NCBI RefSeq assembly: GCF_000376385.1
Contig: NZ_AQWN01000008.1
Span: 1-64,000, forward strand
Source of the DNA: Desulfurispora thermophila DSM 16022
GTDB lineage: Bacteria; Bacillota; Desulfotomaculia; Desulfotomaculales; Desulfurisporaceae
Direction of reading: 5' to 3'
DNA: 64,000 nucleotides
Shown here: piece by piece, positions 43,019 through 52,300 of the stretch
Position numbering within the stretch: the stretch's first letter is position 1
How the letters are laid out: the number at the start of each line of letters is the position of its first letter
Position numbers and translations under genes: made by a program
The notes under the pieces: generated by a model
What the model was told of the DNA's origin: nothing
Seen by the model: only the letters and a program-made list of their open reading frames with translations
Database searches by the model: none

Positions 43019-44008
43019 TTATATCCCCAGCCGCCGCATCTTGCGGCTCAAGGTGCTGGGGTCAATGCCCAGTGCCCGGGCGGCCAGGCGCTTGTCGGAA
43101 TATTTCTGCAGGGCCTGCAAAATGGCCTCTTTTTCCGCCCGGTGGACAATTTCCTGCAGTGTGGTTGGACAGCTGGTGTCCTGCGCACCGGCCCCGGCGT
43201 TCCCCCGAAACTCCGCCGGCAGATCGTCCGCCTCAATCAACTGTTTCGGGCAGGTGATCAGCATCCTTTCCACCAGATTGCGCAGCTGGCGCACATTGCC
43301 CGGCCAGTGGGCCTTTTGCAGCAGCTCCACCGCTGCCGGGCTGAAGCGCTTTTGCAGGCCATAAGCTTCATTTAACTGGTTACAGAAGTGCTCCAGCAGC
43401 GGCGCTATGTCCTCCGGGCGCTGGCGCAGGGGCGGCAGGTGGATGTGCACCACATCCAGGCGGTAAAACAGGTCGCGCCGGAAAAGGCCCCGCTCCACCA
43501 GTTCCGCCAGATCCTGATTGGTGGAAGCAATCACCCGCACATCAATTACTTTGGACCAGGTTCCGCCCACCCGGCGGATTTCTTTTTCCTGCAGGGCGCG
43601 CAGCAGTTTCACCTGGGCCTTCAGCGGCAGCTCGCTGATTTCATCCAGGAGCAGAGTGCCCGGATGGGCGGCTTCAAAAACCCCCATGGCGCCTTCCCGC
43701 CGCCCGCCGGTAAAAGCGCCCTGCTCGTAACCAAACAGTTCGGATTCCAGCAGGTTTTCCGGGATGGCTCCGCAGTTGATGCGGATGAAGGGGTGGCGGG
43801 CACGCGGGCTGATGTAGTGGATGTATGAAGCCAGCACCTCTTTGCCCGTGCCGGTCTCGCCGCTGATCAGTACAGTGGTCGGGTAGGGTGCTACCGCCCT
43901 GGCCAGGTCATAAGCCTGGCGCATGGCCTGGCTGGCAAGAACCGGGGGAATGGGCGAGCCGGGCAGCAGTTCCGGCTGGGGTGGCGAAAAAAGCAGGCGT
44001 TTTTGCAT
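43019..44008 (-). CDS. Sigma-54-dependent transcriptional activator without sensory domain
   Basis: The 329-residue activator consists almost only of an AAA+ domain and a Fis-type DNA-binding domain. It shows GETGTGKEVLA (Walker A), the sigma-54-contacting loop GAFTGGRREGAMG (GAFTGG where most have GAFTGA), LLDEISELPL (Walker B), and a C-terminal helix-turn-helix (LAARALGIDPSTLSRKMRRL). There is no receiver, PAS or GAF domain, so control must be by expression or a partner. ATG 44008 follows GGGAGG; the frame is open far upstream but without sense. It is divergent from, and probably controls, the ligase-amidase-permease operon. Confidence 0.9.
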   Translation of the reverse strand: MQKRLLFSPPQPELLPGSPIPPVLASQAMRQAYDLARAVAPYPTTVLISGETGTGKEVLASYIHYISPRARHPFIRINCGAIPENLLESELFGYEQGAFTGGRREGAMGVFEAAHPGTLLLDEISELPLKAQVKLLRALQEKEIRRVGGTWSKVIDVRVIASTNQDLAELVERGLFRRDLFYRLDVVHIHLPPLRQRPEDIAPLLEHFCNQLNEAYGLQKRFSPAAVELLQKAHWPGNVRQLRNLVERMLITCPKQLIEADDLPAEFRGNAGAGAQDTSCPTTLQEIVHRAEKEAILQALQKYSDKRLAARALGIDPSTLSRKMRRLGI

Positions 44009-44068
44009 GACTGGCCTCCCGCAGTCTTTTTTGTGATAATCAGCAAGGCAGGTACCCGGAATCATTAA

Positions 44069-44082
44069 TTGCAGAAATGCAA
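44069..44082. promoter_or_regulatory. Upstream activator dyad, copy 1
   Basis: TTGCAGAAATGCAA is TTGCA-N4-TGCAA. It lies about 213 bases before the predicted start of transcription of the sigma-54 operon. Confidence 0.65.
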
Positions 44083-44167
44083 GTACGCCAAAAAAAGCAA
44101 AAAATAATACTATTTTTAAATAATAGCATTTTATTTTATTATATTCCTGATATGGTTTCTCTGGCAA

Positions 44168-44181
44168 TTGCAGTAGTGCAA
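44168..44181. promoter_or_regulatory. Upstream activator dyad, copy 2
   Basis: TTGCAGTAGTGCAA has the same arms and spacing as copy 1, with matching AA and G flanks. The copies are 99 bases apart, and this one lies about 114 bases before the predicted start site, a normal enhancer position. Confidence 0.68.
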
Positions 44182-44256
44182 GAAGTGGATAGACGCCTGG
44201 TGCGGGAAAAGCCGGCCCAGGCGGCTGAAAAAACGGCCCGGCCTTTTTGTCGGCGC

Positions 44257-44272
44257 TGGCATGAGAATTGCT
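44257..44272 (+). promoter_or_regulatory. Sigma-54 (-24/-12) promoter
   Basis: TGGCATGAGAATTGCT has GG and GC separated by exactly ten bases and agrees with the TGGCAYG-N4-TTGCW consensus. Transcription would begin near 44282, just before the GGAGG ribosome site at 44286. Confidence 0.88.
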
Positions 44273-44299
44273 CATATTACTTTTATGGAGGCATGCCCT

Positions 44300-45664
44300 G
44301 TGGAAAAGGCAAATTTGCAAGAACACCTGATTCAGCATGTGCAAAACCTGATTCAGGAGTACAACATTCACACCGTACGGTTAACCATTACGGATAACAG
44401 CAATGTGATCCGCTCTCGCTTTGTGCCGGCGCGGGCCTTCTTGAATGCCATTCAGGGCGGGACGGTCGCCCAGTACCCGTCGGCTCTGCTGACGGTGGAC
44501 AGTTCGGCCGAGCTGGTGCCTGAGGCCGGGGAGGGGTTTGCCGGCGGTTTTCCCAGCTTTTTATTGTTGCCCGACCTGAGCACCTTTGTCGTCCTGCCCT
44601 GGGTACCGGGCACGGCCAGGGTGATTGCCGACATTGTCCGGCCCGACGGCAGCCTGTGGGAAGCGGCTCCCCGCCAGGTGCTGCGCCGGGTGCTGGAGCG
44701 GTTGGGCAGGCACGGCTACACATTGAAAGGCGCCTTTGAGTTTGAATTTTATGTTTTGCATAAATCCGGGCCGGAAAGCGCGCACCGCCCGGTATGGCAG
44801 GGGCTGAACTGTTTTGCCGACAGCGTCCAGATCCGCTTGACCGATATATTCACGGCCATTATCAAAGGTCTGGAAGGGATTGGGGCCGGACCGGAAGTGG
44901 CCAACACGGAATACGGTCCCGGTCAGTTTGAGATCACCAACGCCCCTTTTACCGGTCTGGCTGTGGCCGATATGGCGGTTTACTACCGGACATCAATCAA
45001 GGAAATTTTGCACCAGCTGGGCTACAGCGCCACCTTCATGGCCAAGCCCTTCCCCCGCAGCAGTGGCAGTGGCGGGCACTTTCACCATTCCTGGTTGAAT
45101 GAGCGGGGGGAAAATGTCTTTTATGATCCGCAGGCGGCCGATGGTCTGTCACCGCTCTGCCGCCGGGCGATTGCCGGCCAGCTGGCCCACGCGCCGGCCA
45201 TCTGTGCCCTGGCCAACAGCACCATCAACAGCTACAAACGGCTCAGGCCCTATTACTTTGCTCCGGTGAACGCTTCCTGGGGCTACGAGCATCGCTGTAC
45301 CATGCTGCGGGTGCCATTTGCCCGCGGTGAGCAAACCAGGCTGGAAAACCGCCTGCCGGCGGCCGATACCAACCCTTATCTGGCCATAGCCGCCTGTCTG
45401 GCCGCGGCGCTGGACGGAGTGGAAAAAGAGCTGAATCCTGCGCCGCCGGTGGTGGGGCAGAACCCCTATGAGCTGTCTGAACTGCCGCCGCTGCCCGATA
45501 GCCTGCCGGTCGCCCTGGCCGCCCTGGAAAAAGATGCGGTGCTGCAGGAGTATCTGGGTGAGGAGTTCTGCCGCAATTTCCTGGCCCTGCGGCGCCGGGA
45601 GTGGGCCCGTTTCCAGGAGCATATCACCGATTGGGAACTCAACGAGTACCTGGAACTGGTTTAG
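44300..45664 (+). CDS. Glutamine-synthetase-family ligase
   Basis: The 454-residue protein has the GS beta-grasp and catalytic domains: FEFEFYVL (metal Glu pair), EYGPGQFEITNAP, SGSGGHFHHSW, NSTINSYKRLRPYYFAPVNA and the RVENRLP-like RLENRLPAADTNPYLA. It is closer to gamma-glutamylamine (PuuA-like) ligases than to GlnA because it stands with a permease and an amidase; the amine substrate is unknown. GTG 44300 lies 9 bases after GGAGG and downstream of the sigma-54 start site, which rules out the ATG at 44261 (inside the promoter). It is the first gene of a three-gene operon. Confidence 0.9.
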   Translation: MEKANLQEHLIQHVQNLIQEYNIHTVRLTITDNSNVIRSRFVPARAFLNAIQGGTVAQYPSALLTVDSSAELVPEAGEGFAGGFPSFLLLPDLSTFVVLPWVPGTARVIADIVRPDGSLWEAAPRQVLRRVLERLGRHGYTLKGAFEFEFYVLHKSGPESAHRPVWQGLNCFADSVQIRLTDIFTAIIKGLEGIGAGPEVANTEYGPGQFEITNAPFTGLAVADMAVYYRTSIKEILHQLGYSATFMAKPFPRSSGSGGHFHHSWLNERGENVFYDPQAADGLSPLCRRAIAGQLAHAPAICALANSTINSYKRLRPYYFAPVNASWGYEHRCTMLRVPFARGEQTRLENRLPAADTNPYLAIAACLAAALDGVEKELNPAPPVVGQNPYELSELPPLPDSLPVALAALEKDAVLQEYLGEEFCRNFLALRRREWARFQEHITDWELNEYLELV

Positions 45665-48156: not shown

Positions 48157-48280
48157 GTCCAGCTTACTTTGAGGCATAAAATGTTAAAATTAGCAATTAC
48201 CGTATCGGCAACCCGGGTTTTTTGTTATAATGGTAAAGATAAAAACCCGGCGGGCGCCGCCCGGAAAGGAGCCATCTGGT

Positions 48281-50152
48281 GTGATCTCGGTGGAAAACTG
48301 CCTAATTATGAAAGTGAACAATCATAACCGCGGTTATGACGGCAATATCTGTGACAACCCGCGCAAGCACGCCTGCGGTGCCACAGACTACTTCCGGGCC
48401 AACTACTGTGCCCGTCAGATCAAACAATGCTACGACCTGAGTCTGTTTGATGTGGCCCATCCCTCTTTTTACAAGCGGGGCCGTGATGTGGATGTGGATG
48501 GCTATGTATCCGAGCTGTACCGCGCCTGCCAGCAGGGGCAAAACCCGCTGGTCTTTTTCTATACCACCAGCGGGCGGCGCAACATCCTCATCGGCCTGTA
48601 TGTGGTGGGCCAGGTGGACAGGTATCTGGTGGGCTACAGCGGTGACGACTGGGAATACACCTTCTCCCCCCTGGAAGGCTGGGCACTGCGCTTCCCCGAC
48701 CCGCGCCCGGACAACGATTTTCTCTGGCACCACACCGAGGGCAGCCGGGGTATCTGCCACCGGGTCAACCGTAATTATGTGGCCACCGGCCTGGGTATAT
48801 TGATTGACATGTACAGTGAGGCCTTTGCCCGCATGAATCTGGAGCCCGGCCTGCGCCAGGAGCGGGAGAAAATTCTGCCCAAACTGCGCGAACTGCTGGA
48901 GCAACTGGCTCCCGGCACTCCCACCGGCCTGGACATGGCGGGTGCGACTGCCGGGCCGGCCGTGGCCTCCGGTCGCACCAAAGCGGTTTTATTAGCCGCC
49001 CGGCCGGGTAAAGGAGGATCGCCTGCCCCGGCCACCGGTGGCAGGACAGCGGGCGGGGTGGCGGCTGCCGCGCCGGTGGCCGCTACTCAGGTGCAGGGCA
49101 AGGTCCTGGAGGAGGAACAGCGCTCCCTGCAGGAGGTGGTGGCCAGGGTGCAGGCCGAAGCCCGGGCGGCCGGTCTGTATTATTCCGACGACCTTATTAA
49201 ACGCTATCACATTAGTTTAAAGACCAAACCCTTTGTCATTCTGGCCGGCATTTCGGGTGGTGGCAAAACCCGGCTGGTCCTCACCTATGCCCGGGCCACC
49301 GGTGCCGAGCTTTTGCCTGTGGCTGTGCGTCCCGATTGGACCAGCAATGAGAGCCTGCTGGGCGCCTACAACATTTTGCAAAATTCCTTTGTGCCCACGC
49401 CCTTCAGCGAGTTCCTGCTGGCGGCGCAGCGGGAATGCGAGCTGGCGGCGCAGCAAAGCCGCCCGCCCCGCCAGTACATGGTGTTGCTGGACGAGATGAA
49501 CCTGGCCCGGGTGGAATACTATTTTTCCGACTTTCTGAGCAAGATGGAGCTGCCGCCCGAAATGCGGCGCATCCGCCTTTACGATCACCCGGTGGAGGAC
49601 GCCCGCTTTCCCCGGGAGGTAGCCGTACCGCCCAATCTGTCCATCACGGGCACGGTGAACATAGACGAGACCACCCACACCTTCAGCGACAAGGTGCTGG
49701 ATCGCTCCAACTTCATCAAGCTGGAGGAAATAGACTTAAAATCCATGGGCCAGCTCTTTGGTTACTGGCAGCCGCCCCTGGTCAATGAAGAGGCGGCCCA
49801 CCTGCTGGTGGACTATTTGAGCCGTATCAACAACATTTTGCGCGCCGCCGACCAGCAGTTCGGCTACCGCACGGCCACCGAGATCATCCGCTGGGTGGAT
49901 TATGCCCTGGCCAGTGATGCTTTTGGCTTTTACATCGCGCTGGACTACCAGATCAAACAAAAGGTGCTGGCCAAACTGCAGGTGGCCCGCAGTCGCCGGG
50001 CGGACACCGACATGGTGGCGCAGCTTTTGGGCTTCTTCGAGGACGAAAAGCTGCCCGGCGCCGAGGAAGCGGCCTTCCCGCAGTGCCGCGACTATGTGGA
50101 GCGCCTGAACGAGCGGGTGCGGGAGGAGGAATTCACCCTTGGCCAGATCTGA
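48281..50152 (+). CDS. McrB-like AAA+ GTPase/ATPase with unusual N-terminal domain
   Basis: The protein of about 623 residues is the motor of a two-gene McrBC-like defence system (COG1401). The C-terminal AAA+ module has GISGGGKTRL (Walker A), YMVLLDEMNLARVEYYFSDF (Walker B and McrB signature), TGTVNIDETTHTFSDKVLDR (sensor region). The N-terminal part (about 1-200) begins NNHNRGYDGNIC and is rich in Cys and aromatic residues, with a PUA/EVE-like strand LVFFYTTSGRRNILIGLYVV. It is not the standard McrB DUF3578 domain and may recognise modified DNA; this is inference. An Ala/Gly/Pro linker (220-290) joins the halves. GTG 48281 follows GGAAAGGAG; ATG 48308 is possible. It overlaps the next gene by 14 bases. 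Confidence 0.85.
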   Translation: MISVENCLIMKVNNHNRGYDGNICDNPRKHACGATDYFRANYCARQIKQCYDLSLFDVAHPSFYKRGRDVDVDGYVSELYRACQQGQNPLVFFYTTSGRRNILIGLYVVGQVDRYLVGYSGDDWEYTFSPLEGWALRFPDPRPDNDFLWHHTEGSRGICHRVNRNYVATGLGILIDMYSEAFARMNLEPGLRQEREKILPKLRELLEQLAPGTPTGLDMAGATAGPAVASGRTKAVLLAARPGKGGSPAPATGGRTAGGVAAAAPVAATQVQGKVLEEEQRSLQEVVARVQAEARAAGLYYSDDLIKRYHISLKTKPFVILAGISGGGKTRLVLTYARATGAELLPVAVRPDWTSNESLLGAYNILQNSFVPTPFSEFLLAAQRECELAAQQSRPPRQYMVLLDEMNLARVEYYFSDFLSKMELPPEMRRIRLYDHPVEDARFPREVAVPPNLSITGTVNIDETTHTFSDKVLDRSNFIKLEEIDLKSMGQLFGYWQPPLVNEEAAHLLVDYLSRINNILRAADQQFGYRTATEIIRWVDYALASDAFGFYIALDYQIKQKVLAKLQVARSRRADTDMVAQLLGFFEDEKLPGAEEAAFPQCRDYVERLNERVREEEFTLGQI

Positions 50153-51908
50153 GCTGCCGCCCTGGCTGACGGCGGCGCTGCAGGAAGTGCAGGTCTACCT
50201 GCTGGGCCAGCAGATGACCGGTGTGGACATGGAGCAACCGCCGGAAATTGAAGCGGCCGATCTGAGCACGCTGATGATTGTCTACCCGGAGGGCGAACTG
50301 GATCCCGGCCAGCTGCACATGCTTTTGGACTACGACCCCGGGCTGGGAGGGTATCCGCTGCGCTTTTTCCGGGCCGCTCCCGGTGTGTTGCGCCCGGAGA
50401 GCGAACAGGTACAGCAGTACGCCGGGCAGAAGTTCCTGGGCGAGAGTCAGCTGGCCCTGGCCTACGGCGGGGAACTGCTGGAGGAGAAAATTTTCACCGT
50501 GCGTTTTCTAGTCAGCCAGTTCACGGTGCAGCAAATCAACTTTATGCGCGCCGAGCTGGCGGCGCAAAATATTTCTCTGCTGGATTTTTACGGTATGGGC
50601 CGGGATCTGCAGGAGCTGGTCCGTCACCTGCCGCCCGGTGCGGCGGCGGCCCGCTTTGAGGTGTTGCGCCGGGTGGTGGGTGAGTTTTTGCCTCTTTTCC
50701 GCCGCATTGAGCGCGATCCGCAGCGCGCTTTACAGCGGATTGCGGTGCACAAGCCGCTGCACAGGGCCGGGTGCGTTTCGCTGCATATGCTGGACCAGGC
50801 CGCCCGCCGGACCGGGCAATGGCAGTGGCTGGAGGGGCCGGCCGGCCGGGCGCTTTTGCCCGCCCTGCTGCCGGGGGAGGAAAATGTGGTCTCCTACGAC
50901 ACGCCGGACAACCGCTTTTTGCTCCAGCTGGTGGGGCAGATGCGCCGGGAAGCCACGCTATTAAAGAAACAGCTGGCCACCGAGATCGCCCATCAGACCC
51001 GCCGGGCGGCCGAGCTCAAGGGTGGTTTTCGGGAGTGGGTGCTGGAGCAGGCTGCCCGGGCGCGGCGGGGGGTGCAGTATCTGGCCGGGGTGGAAAACAC
51101 CATGGATGGCCTGGTGCAGAGCAGCTTCTTGCGCTATTTGCCCGCCCTCACCCTGCGCCAGAGCCGGGACGCCCAGACGCTGCACCCGCTCTACCGCCAG
51201 GCCCGCCGTCTGGCCCGGCGCCTTAAATCCGGCCTGCGCCTGGCCGACCAGGTGATTGCGGTGGATGAGGCGGCACTGCCCGTGCGCACCCGCAGTATCA
51301 ATACCCTGTACGAATACTGGGTGGCTATGAGTGTGGTACGTGCTCTGGTTGAGCTGGGCTTTGTACCGCTGGCCAAAAACGGGGCGCAACTGGCGGGAGA
51401 TGAGGACAGCTTCAACTACAACCTGAAAGAAAATGGTGTGGTGGAACTGCAGGCCAAAGGGGGAGGGCGCCTGCTGGTCTGGTACGCCCGCCGCTACCCC
51501 CGCCTGGATTATGCGCCAGCCGCGCTGCTGGGCGCCTATCCCTACCGCATTGCCGGCATCTGGCAGTGCAAGGACTGTCCGGACGTGGCCATAGAATACT
51601 ACCCGCCCGGTGTGCCTACGCCCGAGATCATCACCCTGGACGCCACTTTCAGTCATGACCCGCGTAAGTTGCAGGAAAAGCAATACTACACCGACACTAT
51701 CCGCAGCCGCACCTCCCCCCACCAGCCCGAGGAGGAGTGGGACTTTCCTGTGCGCGAGGCCTGGGCCATCTATCCGGATGACTACTACCCCCCGGCCCGG
51801 CGCAGCCGTACCACGGGCGGCGAGCTGGGTCTGGTACCCGGTCCCGGGGCGGCCGAGCGCCTGCGCCGCTGGCTGGCCGAGCGCCTGCAGGCCGTGTGGG
51901 GGTTGTGA
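50139..51908 (+). CDS. DUF2357-type McrC-like nuclease subunit (COG1700)
   Basis: The 589-residue partner of the McrB-like protein has a long helical and beta N-terminal region (DUF2357, about 60-330: RFLVSQFTVQQINFMRAELA, YDTPDNRFLLQLVGQ). The C-terminal part is a PD-(D/E)XK-like nuclease. It starts at SINTLYEYWVAM and includes CPDVAIEYYPPG and IITLDATFSHDP. In most relatives the last motif is DAKYR; here the Lys is a Thr, so cleavage could be altered or use a nearby Lys. TTG 50139 follows GGGAGGAGGA inside the end of the previous gene, a tight coupling. It is not a classical McrC. Confidence 0.82.
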   Translation: MARSELPPWLTAALQEVQVYLLGQQMTGVDMEQPPEIEAADLSTLMIVYPEGELDPGQLHMLLDYDPGLGGYPLRFFRAAPGVLRPESEQVQQYAGQKFLGESQLALAYGGELLEEKIFTVRFLVSQFTVQQINFMRAELAAQNISLLDFYGMGRDLQELVRHLPPGAAAARFEVLRRVVGEFLPLFRRIERDPQRALQRIAVHKPLHRAGCVSLHMLDQAARRTGQWQWLEGPAGRALLPALLPGEENVVSYDTPDNRFLLQLVGQMRREATLLKKQLATEIAHQTRRAAELKGGFREWVLEQAARARRGVQYLAGVENTMDGLVQSSFLRYLPALTLRQSRDAQTLHPLYRQARRLARRLKSGLRLADQVIAVDEAALPVRTRSINTLYEYWVAMSVVRALVELGFVPLAKNGAQLAGDEDSFNYNLKENGVVELQAKGGGRLLVWYARRYPRLDYAPAALLGAYPYRIAGIWQCKDCPDVAIEYYPPGVPTPEIITLDATFSHDPRKLQEKQYYTDTIRSRTSPHQPEEEWDFPVREAWAIYPDDYYPPARRSRTTGGELGLVPGPGAAERLRRWLAERLQAVWGL

Positions 51909-52000
51909 GGCGGGGCCTACGGGGTAAAGGGGCGCTTTTAGCCCTTCTGCCCCGTTCTTTGTGGAAATATTGTAGCGAAGATAGGAGGTGCCTGTTTCCG

Positions 52001-52300
52001 TTGAATATGGCACAGATGCTTGTAGGCTGGCCGGCAGTAATTGTTTCATTGCTTCTGGCATTTGCAGGCATAATTCGCCAGCGTGCGCTGTTCGTGTGCC
52101 TGGCAATGATCCTGATGGGAGGCTTTGTCTGGTATTTGCTCAACTTGCCCGGTGCTGTGAACTTGATGGTGGGCAGTGCTGTGCCTGTTCTGTATATGTT
52201 ATTGGCATTTTCTGTTGCCGGGAAGAAATTCCTGCTGGCGTGGCTGTTGCTTGGGCTACAAGTGTTGAATATATTGTTATTTATTGTATACATTAGTTGA
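52001..52300 (+). CDS. Small hydrophobic membrane protein
   Basis: The protein of about 99 residues has four hydrophobic segments and no recognised motif. AGGAGG at 51983-51988 supports TTG 52001 (12-base gap); ATG 52007 is also in frame. It sits between the defence pair and the acyl-CoA ligase and could belong to either neighbourhood or neither. It is not assigned to a family. Confidence 0.55.
   Translation: MNMAQMLVGWPAVIVSLLLAFAGIIRQRALFVCLAMILMGGFVWYLLNLPGAVNLMVGSAVPVLYMLLAFSVAGKKFLLAWLLLGLQVLNILLFIVYIS

What the first reader, a model, noticed from the sequence alone, without database searches (positions are those of the whole stretch)
48281..51908. Two-gene McrB-like/DUF2357 defence system with a non-standard reader domain
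Seen: an AAA+ protein with the McrB signature overlaps by 14 bases a large protein with DUF2357 and a PD-(D/E)XK-like end. Known: COG1401-COG1700 pairs are predicted virus-defence systems. New here: the N-terminal 200 residues begin NNHNRGYDGNIC, carry several Cys (ICDNPRKHACG, NYCARQIKQC) and a PUA/EVE-like strand pattern, and are not the usual McrB DNA-binding domain. This may define a subtype that reads a different DNA or RNA modification.
Basis: partly seen in the sequence, partly recalled or inferred. Interest (0 to 1): 0.75.

Follow-up and report, generated by a model that had tools for sequence, protein, structure and literature searches.

The report
McrBC-like defence pair, new reader domain
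A rare two-gene bacterial defence cassette of the McrBC kind carries a front-end domain that is absent from the family libraries, is shared with another family of candidate anti-phage helicases, and is paired with a nuclease partner that has lost a catalytic lysine, so its target and its way of stopping an invader are probably not the textbook ones.

Summary
In detail: 48281-50152 (AAA+, McrB-like) overlaps by 14 bases 50139-51908 (DUF2357 + PD-(D/E)xK fold). The AAA+ motif is GTVNIDE, so this belongs to the poorly studied 'NxD' branch of McrBC, not the classical NxxD kind. The N-terminal ~190 residues match nothing in Pfam, NCBIfam, PHROGs or PDB sequences and are not the usual DUF3578/ADAM domain (the ADAM paralogue in the same genome is found at 9e-47). 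Only two full-length relatives turned up: one 92% identical as an isolated 3.7-kb block in another bacterial family, beside a Wadjet system; one distant (37%). The domain is not private to McrB: the same H-x3-[YW]-[DN]-G-x-[IV]-C-x2-P...C...C layout opens the PDC-S68 RecD-like candidate defence helicases, whose predicted fold is nearest EVE domains and an archaeal McrB reader domain (suggestive, E 0.008). New finding: all three partners have DAT instead of the catalytic DxK that all 12 other NxD partners aligned keep. Best reading: a rare, horizontally moving McrBC variant with an EVE/YTH-like Cys-containing reader and a changed or dead McrC active site. What it reads, and whether it cuts, is untested.

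The parts
48281..50152 (+). McrB-like AAA+ protein, 623 aa, NxD branch (GTVNIDE at residues 457-463)
   Evidence: ORF; AAA_5; PDC-M26A 6e-52; motif numbering; NxD branch as defined in PMC11090510
48281..48850 (+). N-terminal putative reader domain (about residues 1-190), Cys-containing, shared with PDC-S68 helicases
   Evidence: no match in Pfam, PHROGs, PDB sequences; alignments A1/A3; hhalign against PDC-S68 N-domain, 0 of 200 shuffles reach the score
48323..48430 (+). Conserved H15, YDG (19-21), C24, P27, C32, C50 segment (possible metal site; inferred)
   Evidence: invariant or nearly invariant columns in A3 and A4; H15 is replaced by Lys in two PDC-S68 members
48881..49120 (+). Ala/Gly/Pro-rich linker between reader and AAA+ domain
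   Evidence: dN/dS 0.91 against 0.12-0.14 for the flanking domains
50139..51908 (+). McrC-like partner: DUF2357 plus PD-(D/E)xK fold with the catalytic Lys replaced by T503
   Evidence: alignment with 14 other NxD partners; numbering
48263..48271 (+). Shine-Dalgarno-like AAAGGAG before the GTG start (approximate position)
   Evidence: sequence
48240..51932 (+). 3.69-kb cassette conserved at 92.3% in G054 with unrelated flanks
   Evidence: blastn

Best explanation
The locus is a stand-alone, horizontally moving, two-gene Type-IV-restriction-like defence cassette of the NxD branch of McrBC. Shown: gene order, overlap, AAA+ and DUF2357 domains, NxD motif, non-ADAM N-domain, purifying selection, co-distribution of the N-domain with its McrC partner, loss of the DxK lysine. 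Inferred: the N-domain, an EVE/YTH-like fold with an extra Cys/His-containing segment, touches a feature of foreign nucleic acid (most likely a modified base); the AAA+ part forms a GTP-driven hexamer that DUF2357 activates; and the complex then translocates on, blocks or cuts the target. Because the nuclease lysine is replaced by threonine in all three members, cutting either uses a moved residue (K514 is present in all three) or is lost, in which case the complex works as a roadblock or remodeller rather than a cutter.
For: McrB-like/DUF2357 architecture; GTVNIDE in the window protein and its two relatives, and GTVN[ILM]DE or GSVNMDE in nearly all other homologues inspected, the NxD branch of PMC11090510. 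AAA+ tree groups the three members with 0.984 support. N-domain and its McrC are found in the same 3 of 398 sampled genomes. hhalign N-domain against PDC-S68 N-domain: score 32.3, P 5.5e-4, best of 200 column shuffles 23.4; global 19.9 against 18.5. A profile of the three McrB N-domains, used on 398 genomes, gave a PDC-S68 N-terminus as its best intact-ORF non-member (E 0.019). AF2 model of the PDC-S68 domain, pLDDT 70, pTM 0.77; top Foldseek PDB hits 2p5d (probability 0.84) and 2hd9, and at rank 5 6p0g, the T. gammatolerans McrB reader domain. DAT instead of DxK in 3 of 3, against DxK/ExK in 12 of 12 others. Cassette block with unrelated flanks, next to JetA2/B2/C2 in G054.
Against: Fold hits are weak (E 0.008 to 0.19, TM-scores 0.2-0.36) and come from a homologue; the window domain itself could not be modelled (pLDDT 43). 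hmmsearch with the PDC-S68 profile gives the window only E 0.67, though first among non-members of 6,780 ORFs. In the window and in G228 the neighbourhood is metabolic, not a defence island. Only three members, two nearly identical; the G054 McrC carries two 1-base deletions near its start, so it may be decaying.
Confidence: 0.6

Rival explanations
1. An ordinary McrBC-type DNA cutter: the missing lysine is harmless and the unusual N-domain is simply another interchangeable DNA-specificity module.
For: McrB specificity modules are known to be swapped (ADAM, EVE, YTH, DCD; PMC7641849). PD and D of the triad are kept, and K514 is conserved in all three members. Some PD-(D/E)xK enzymes work without the usual lysine (BamHI, BglII; own knowledge). 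The nuclease part is under purifying selection (dN/dS 0.13).
Against: In E. [quoted passage not shown] All 12 other NxD partners aligned keep [DE]xK.
Confidence: 0.25
2. A CoCoNuT-like, RNA-directed system with a dead McrC nuclease.
For: NxD motif and a catalytically changed PD-(D/E)xK fold are both seen in CoCoNuTs, as are YTH-like domains (PMC11090510).
Against: CoCoNuTs with missing or dead McrC nucleases are reported always to lie next to HEPN or other nucleases; no such gene adjoins any of the three loci (in G054 the neighbour is a separate Wadjet system). No other domain was hit in the window pair.
Confidence: 0.08
3. Not a defence system: a repurposed McrB/McrC pair with a cellular role, as reported for the S. 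aureus division-plane protein PcdA.
For: Chromosomal setting among metabolic genes in the window; PcdA precedent (PMC10602043).
Against: Patchy distribution (3 of 398 genomes), 92% identical block with unrelated flanks in another family, Wadjet neighbour.
Confidence: 0.07

Closest known systems
McrBC, NxD branch (Bell et al. 2024, PMC11090510); PADLOC PDC-M26A
   Same: AAA+ domain with NxD(E) motif upstream of a DUF2357/PD-(D/E)xK partner; overlapping genes
   Different: N-domain not ADAM/EVE by profile; catalytic Lys of the partner replaced by Thr; no accessory nuclease or methyltransferase gene directly beside it
PDC-S68 candidate defence helicases (PADLOC; RecD-like SF1, about 1,200 aa)
   Same: N-terminal domain: same order of H, [YW][DN]G, C, P, C, C, (V/I)FFY strand, (L/V)(I/V)G strand
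   Different: Fused to a RecD-like helicase, not AAA+/McrB; domain longer by about 80-100 residues
[quoted passage not shown] YTH-like)
   Same: N-terminal reader of a McrB; rank 5 in the fold search with the homologous domain
   Different: No detectable sequence similarity; McrC there has DxK (Asp354, Lys356)
E. coli McrBC
   Same: Reader-AAA+ protein plus DUF2357-nuclease
   Different: NxxD motif, ADAM (DUF3578) reader of methylcytosine, intact DxK

Membership tests
McrBC (COG1401/COG1700-type pair) | AAA+ gene upstream of, and overlapping, a DUF2357 gene | tested here: met
McrBC, classical | NxxD signature in the AAA+ domain | tested here: not met
   GTVNIDE = NxD
McrBC, NxD branch | NxD motif, usually followed by E or D | tested here: met
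McrBC nuclease | PD...[DE]xK catalytic triad in the partner | tested here: not met
   PD482...D501-A-T503
ADAM/DUF3578 reader (PF12102) | profile match of the N-domain | tested here: not met
   none; own-genome paralogue 9e-47
EVE/YTH/PUA reader | Pfam profile match (EVE, YTH, ASCH families) | tested here: not met
EVE/YTH/PUA reader | fold | tested here: inconclusive
   homologous domain hits 2p5d E 0.008, 2hd9 E 0.024, 6p0g E 0.19; window model unusable
PDC-S68 N-domain | collinear Cys/YDG/FFY/LIG pattern, profile-profile score above shuffles | tested here: met
   plain hmmsearch alone is not significant
CoCoNuT | accessory HEPN or other nuclease beside a dead McrC nuclease | tested here: not met
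   no such ORF beside the three loci by inspection and partial Pfam scans
CoCoNuT | long coiled coils in the McrB homologue | not tested
   no coiled-coil predictor used; the linker is Ala/Gly/Pro-rich
Type IV restriction | modification-dependent restriction of DNA | not testable with these tools
   needs experiments

The most novel reading that the evidence does not exclude
A McrBC variant that does not cut: a Cys-containing EVE-like reader, shared with RecD-like defence helicases, recognises an unusual nucleic-acid mark, and the GTP-driven complex with a lysine-less McrC stops replication or transcription of the invader as a roadblock, without a companion nuclease.
Probability: 0.2. Interest if true: 0.75.

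Novelty: new variant of a known kind. Interest (0 to 1): 0.5.

Why it matters
It points to a reader domain not in Pfam that serves two different motors (McrB-type AAA+ and RecD-like helicase), which suggests a common recognised feature of foreign DNA. It is also a McrC lineage that kept its fold under selection while losing the catalytic lysine without a neighbouring nuclease, which would be an exception to the rule reported for CoCoNuTs and is easy to test.

Tried and rejected
Pfam, NCBIfam, PHROGs and PDB sequence searches of the N-domain: nothing. Viral contigs, plasmids and phages searched for the N-domain: nothing. The genome-contig scan found only one AAA+ relative, matched outside the domain. 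Weak hits L025 and L026 rejected (stop codons; aldo-keto reductase-like ORF). AF2 of the window domain from three sequences: pLDDT 43, unusable; its fold hits (YTH structures scattered among KaiC structures, all at E above 1) are not used as evidence. Most H...WDGxIC pattern hits in viral contigs were an unrelated short C-terminal motif near a Cys cluster. Foldseek against viral models: nothing. Papers naming PDC-S68 or PDC-M26: none in the library.

Full report
Observation. The upstream gene starts at GTG 48281, has a Shine-Dalgarno-like AAAGGAG 9 nt upstream, and its stop at 50150-50152 lies inside the downstream gene, which starts at TTG 50139. Pfam finds AAA_5 in the first and DUF2357 plus a weak PDDEXK_7 in the second; PADLOC puts the first in candidate defence family PDC-M26A at 6e-52.

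Which McrB. The AAA+ motif is GTVNIDE. Nearly every related protein fetched has GTVN[ILM]DE or GSVNMDE, that is, the shortened NxD motif which Bell et al. (PMC11090510) use to define a large and biochemically uncharacterised branch of McrBC. In that branch the N-terminal modules are swapped freely: among the homologues here there are DUF3578/ADAM domains (the paralogue in the same genome, G000:C3, scores 9.3e-47 for PF12102) and several other kinds. The window's module is found in only two other genomes. G054 (another family of the same order) carries it at 91% protein identity, and G228 (another class) at 37% over the whole protein. The partner gene of this type occurs in the same three of 398 sampled genomes (a fourth, weak hit in G430 covers 80 residues of a 1,932-aa frame), and the AAA+ domains of the three form a clade with 0.984 support. 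So reader, motor and partner travel together as a distinct subtype.

Mobility and selection. Against an 18-kb stretch of G054, blastn finds one block only, window 48240-51932, at 92.3%; the flanks are unrelated. In G054 the block lies beside JetA2, JetB2 and JetC2 of a type II Wadjet system and near a reverse-transcriptase ORF that looks like a group II intron maturase. In the window the neighbours are an amino-acid permease, a glutamine-synthetase-like gene, an AMP-binding ligase and a CO dehydrogenase gene. Between the two copies dN/dS is 0.14 for the N-domain, 0.12 for the AAA+ domain and 0.15 for McrC (0.13 for its nuclease part), but 0.91 for the linker: the N-domain is a working domain. 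The G054 McrC has two single-base deletions near its start relative to the window (positions 50212 and 50291), which break its first part; that copy may be decaying or may start further down.

What the N-domain is. No library knows it. A profile of its three members, run on 398 genomes, gave one sensible outside hit, the N-terminus of a protein beginning ...VWHDRAWDGHICNQPSRNVYC (L047). That protein belongs to PDC-S68, a PADLOC candidate family of RecD-like helicases. Further PDC-S68 N-domains were fetched. They align with the McrB domain from end to end: H-x3-[YW]-[DN]-G-x-[IV]-C-x2-P, a second Cys, a third Cys (IKQC / IPGC / IPPC) followed by F, a P-[SP]-x-[FW] stretch, then LVFFY / LVFYY and LIG / LVG strands. 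hhalign gives score 32.3 (P 5.5e-4) locally and 19.9 globally; none of 200 column-shuffled profiles reaches either (best 23.4 and 18.5). A plain hmmsearch is not significant (E 0.67), although the window ORF is the first non-member among 6,780 ORFs. I take the homology as likely, not proven.

Fold. The window domain could not be modelled from three sequences (pLDDT 43). The homologous PDC-S68 domain with nine sequences gave pLDDT 70 and pTM 0.77, with the Cys segment still poorly placed. Its two best PDB matches are 2p5d and 2hd9, archaeal proteins which I know as EVE/UPF0310 domains (own knowledge), and the fifth is 6p0g, the N-terminal reader of T. gammatolerans McrB. H15, C24, C32 and C50 could form a metal site; H15 is Lys in two PDC-S68 members, so this is conjecture.

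The partner's active site. An alignment of McrC partners from 15 loci shows [DE]xK in the nuclease (DAKYR, EVKYR, EVKFR) in the 12 others, whereas all three members of this subtype have DATFS: the lysine (E. coli Lys259; [quoted passage not shown] PD482 and D501 are kept, and K514 is conserved in all three. Either a moved residue replaces the lysine, or the nuclease does not cut. In CoCoNuTs a dead McrC is reported always to come with another nuclease next door; none is seen beside these three loci.

Mechanism. Most likely: reader touches foreign nucleic acid, AAA+ hexamer with DUF2357 as activator, then block or cut. Steps shown: architecture, motif class, selection, loss of lysine. Steps inferred: GTP use, target, outcome.

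Context of PDC-S68. On several records it sits next to restriction-type genes: a type ISP enzyme (L114), an SNF2-related gene (L113), a ResIII-type helicase (L125) and, one gene away, an HsdR gene (L116), which fits a reader used by DNA-restriction systems; other records show no such neighbour (L115, L118, L127).

Verdict. A new variant of a known kind, of moderate interest, with two clean tests: what does the domain bind, and does the partner cut?

Noticed in passing
PDC-S68 loci L083, L085, L113, L114, L116, L118, L120, L125, L128: The N-terminal domain of PDC-S68 helicases is itself absent from Pfam and looks EVE-like in a prediction; it deserves its own family entry.
   Followed up: partly
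G000:C3:152793-153695 (L002, L029): The same genome carries a second NxD McrB-like pair with an ADAM (DUF3578) reader, preceded by an SRAP/YedK-like ORF (named from the sequence, not scanned).
   Followed up: partly
L028 3934-5205 and 11014-17801: G054: reverse-transcriptase ORF (group II intron-like) and a type II Wadjet system beside the cassette.
   Followed up: yes
L028, homologous to window 50212 and 50291: Two 1-base deletions near the start of the G054 McrC gene; possible decay or assembly error.
   Followed up: no
window 43852-43942: ARAGORN tRNA-Ile(tat) call lies inside the sigma-54 activator ORF 43019-44371 and is probably false.
   Followed up: no
window 51896-52300: 134-aa membrane-like ORF after the cassette, no Pfam hit; not part of the block conserved in G054.
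   Followed up: no
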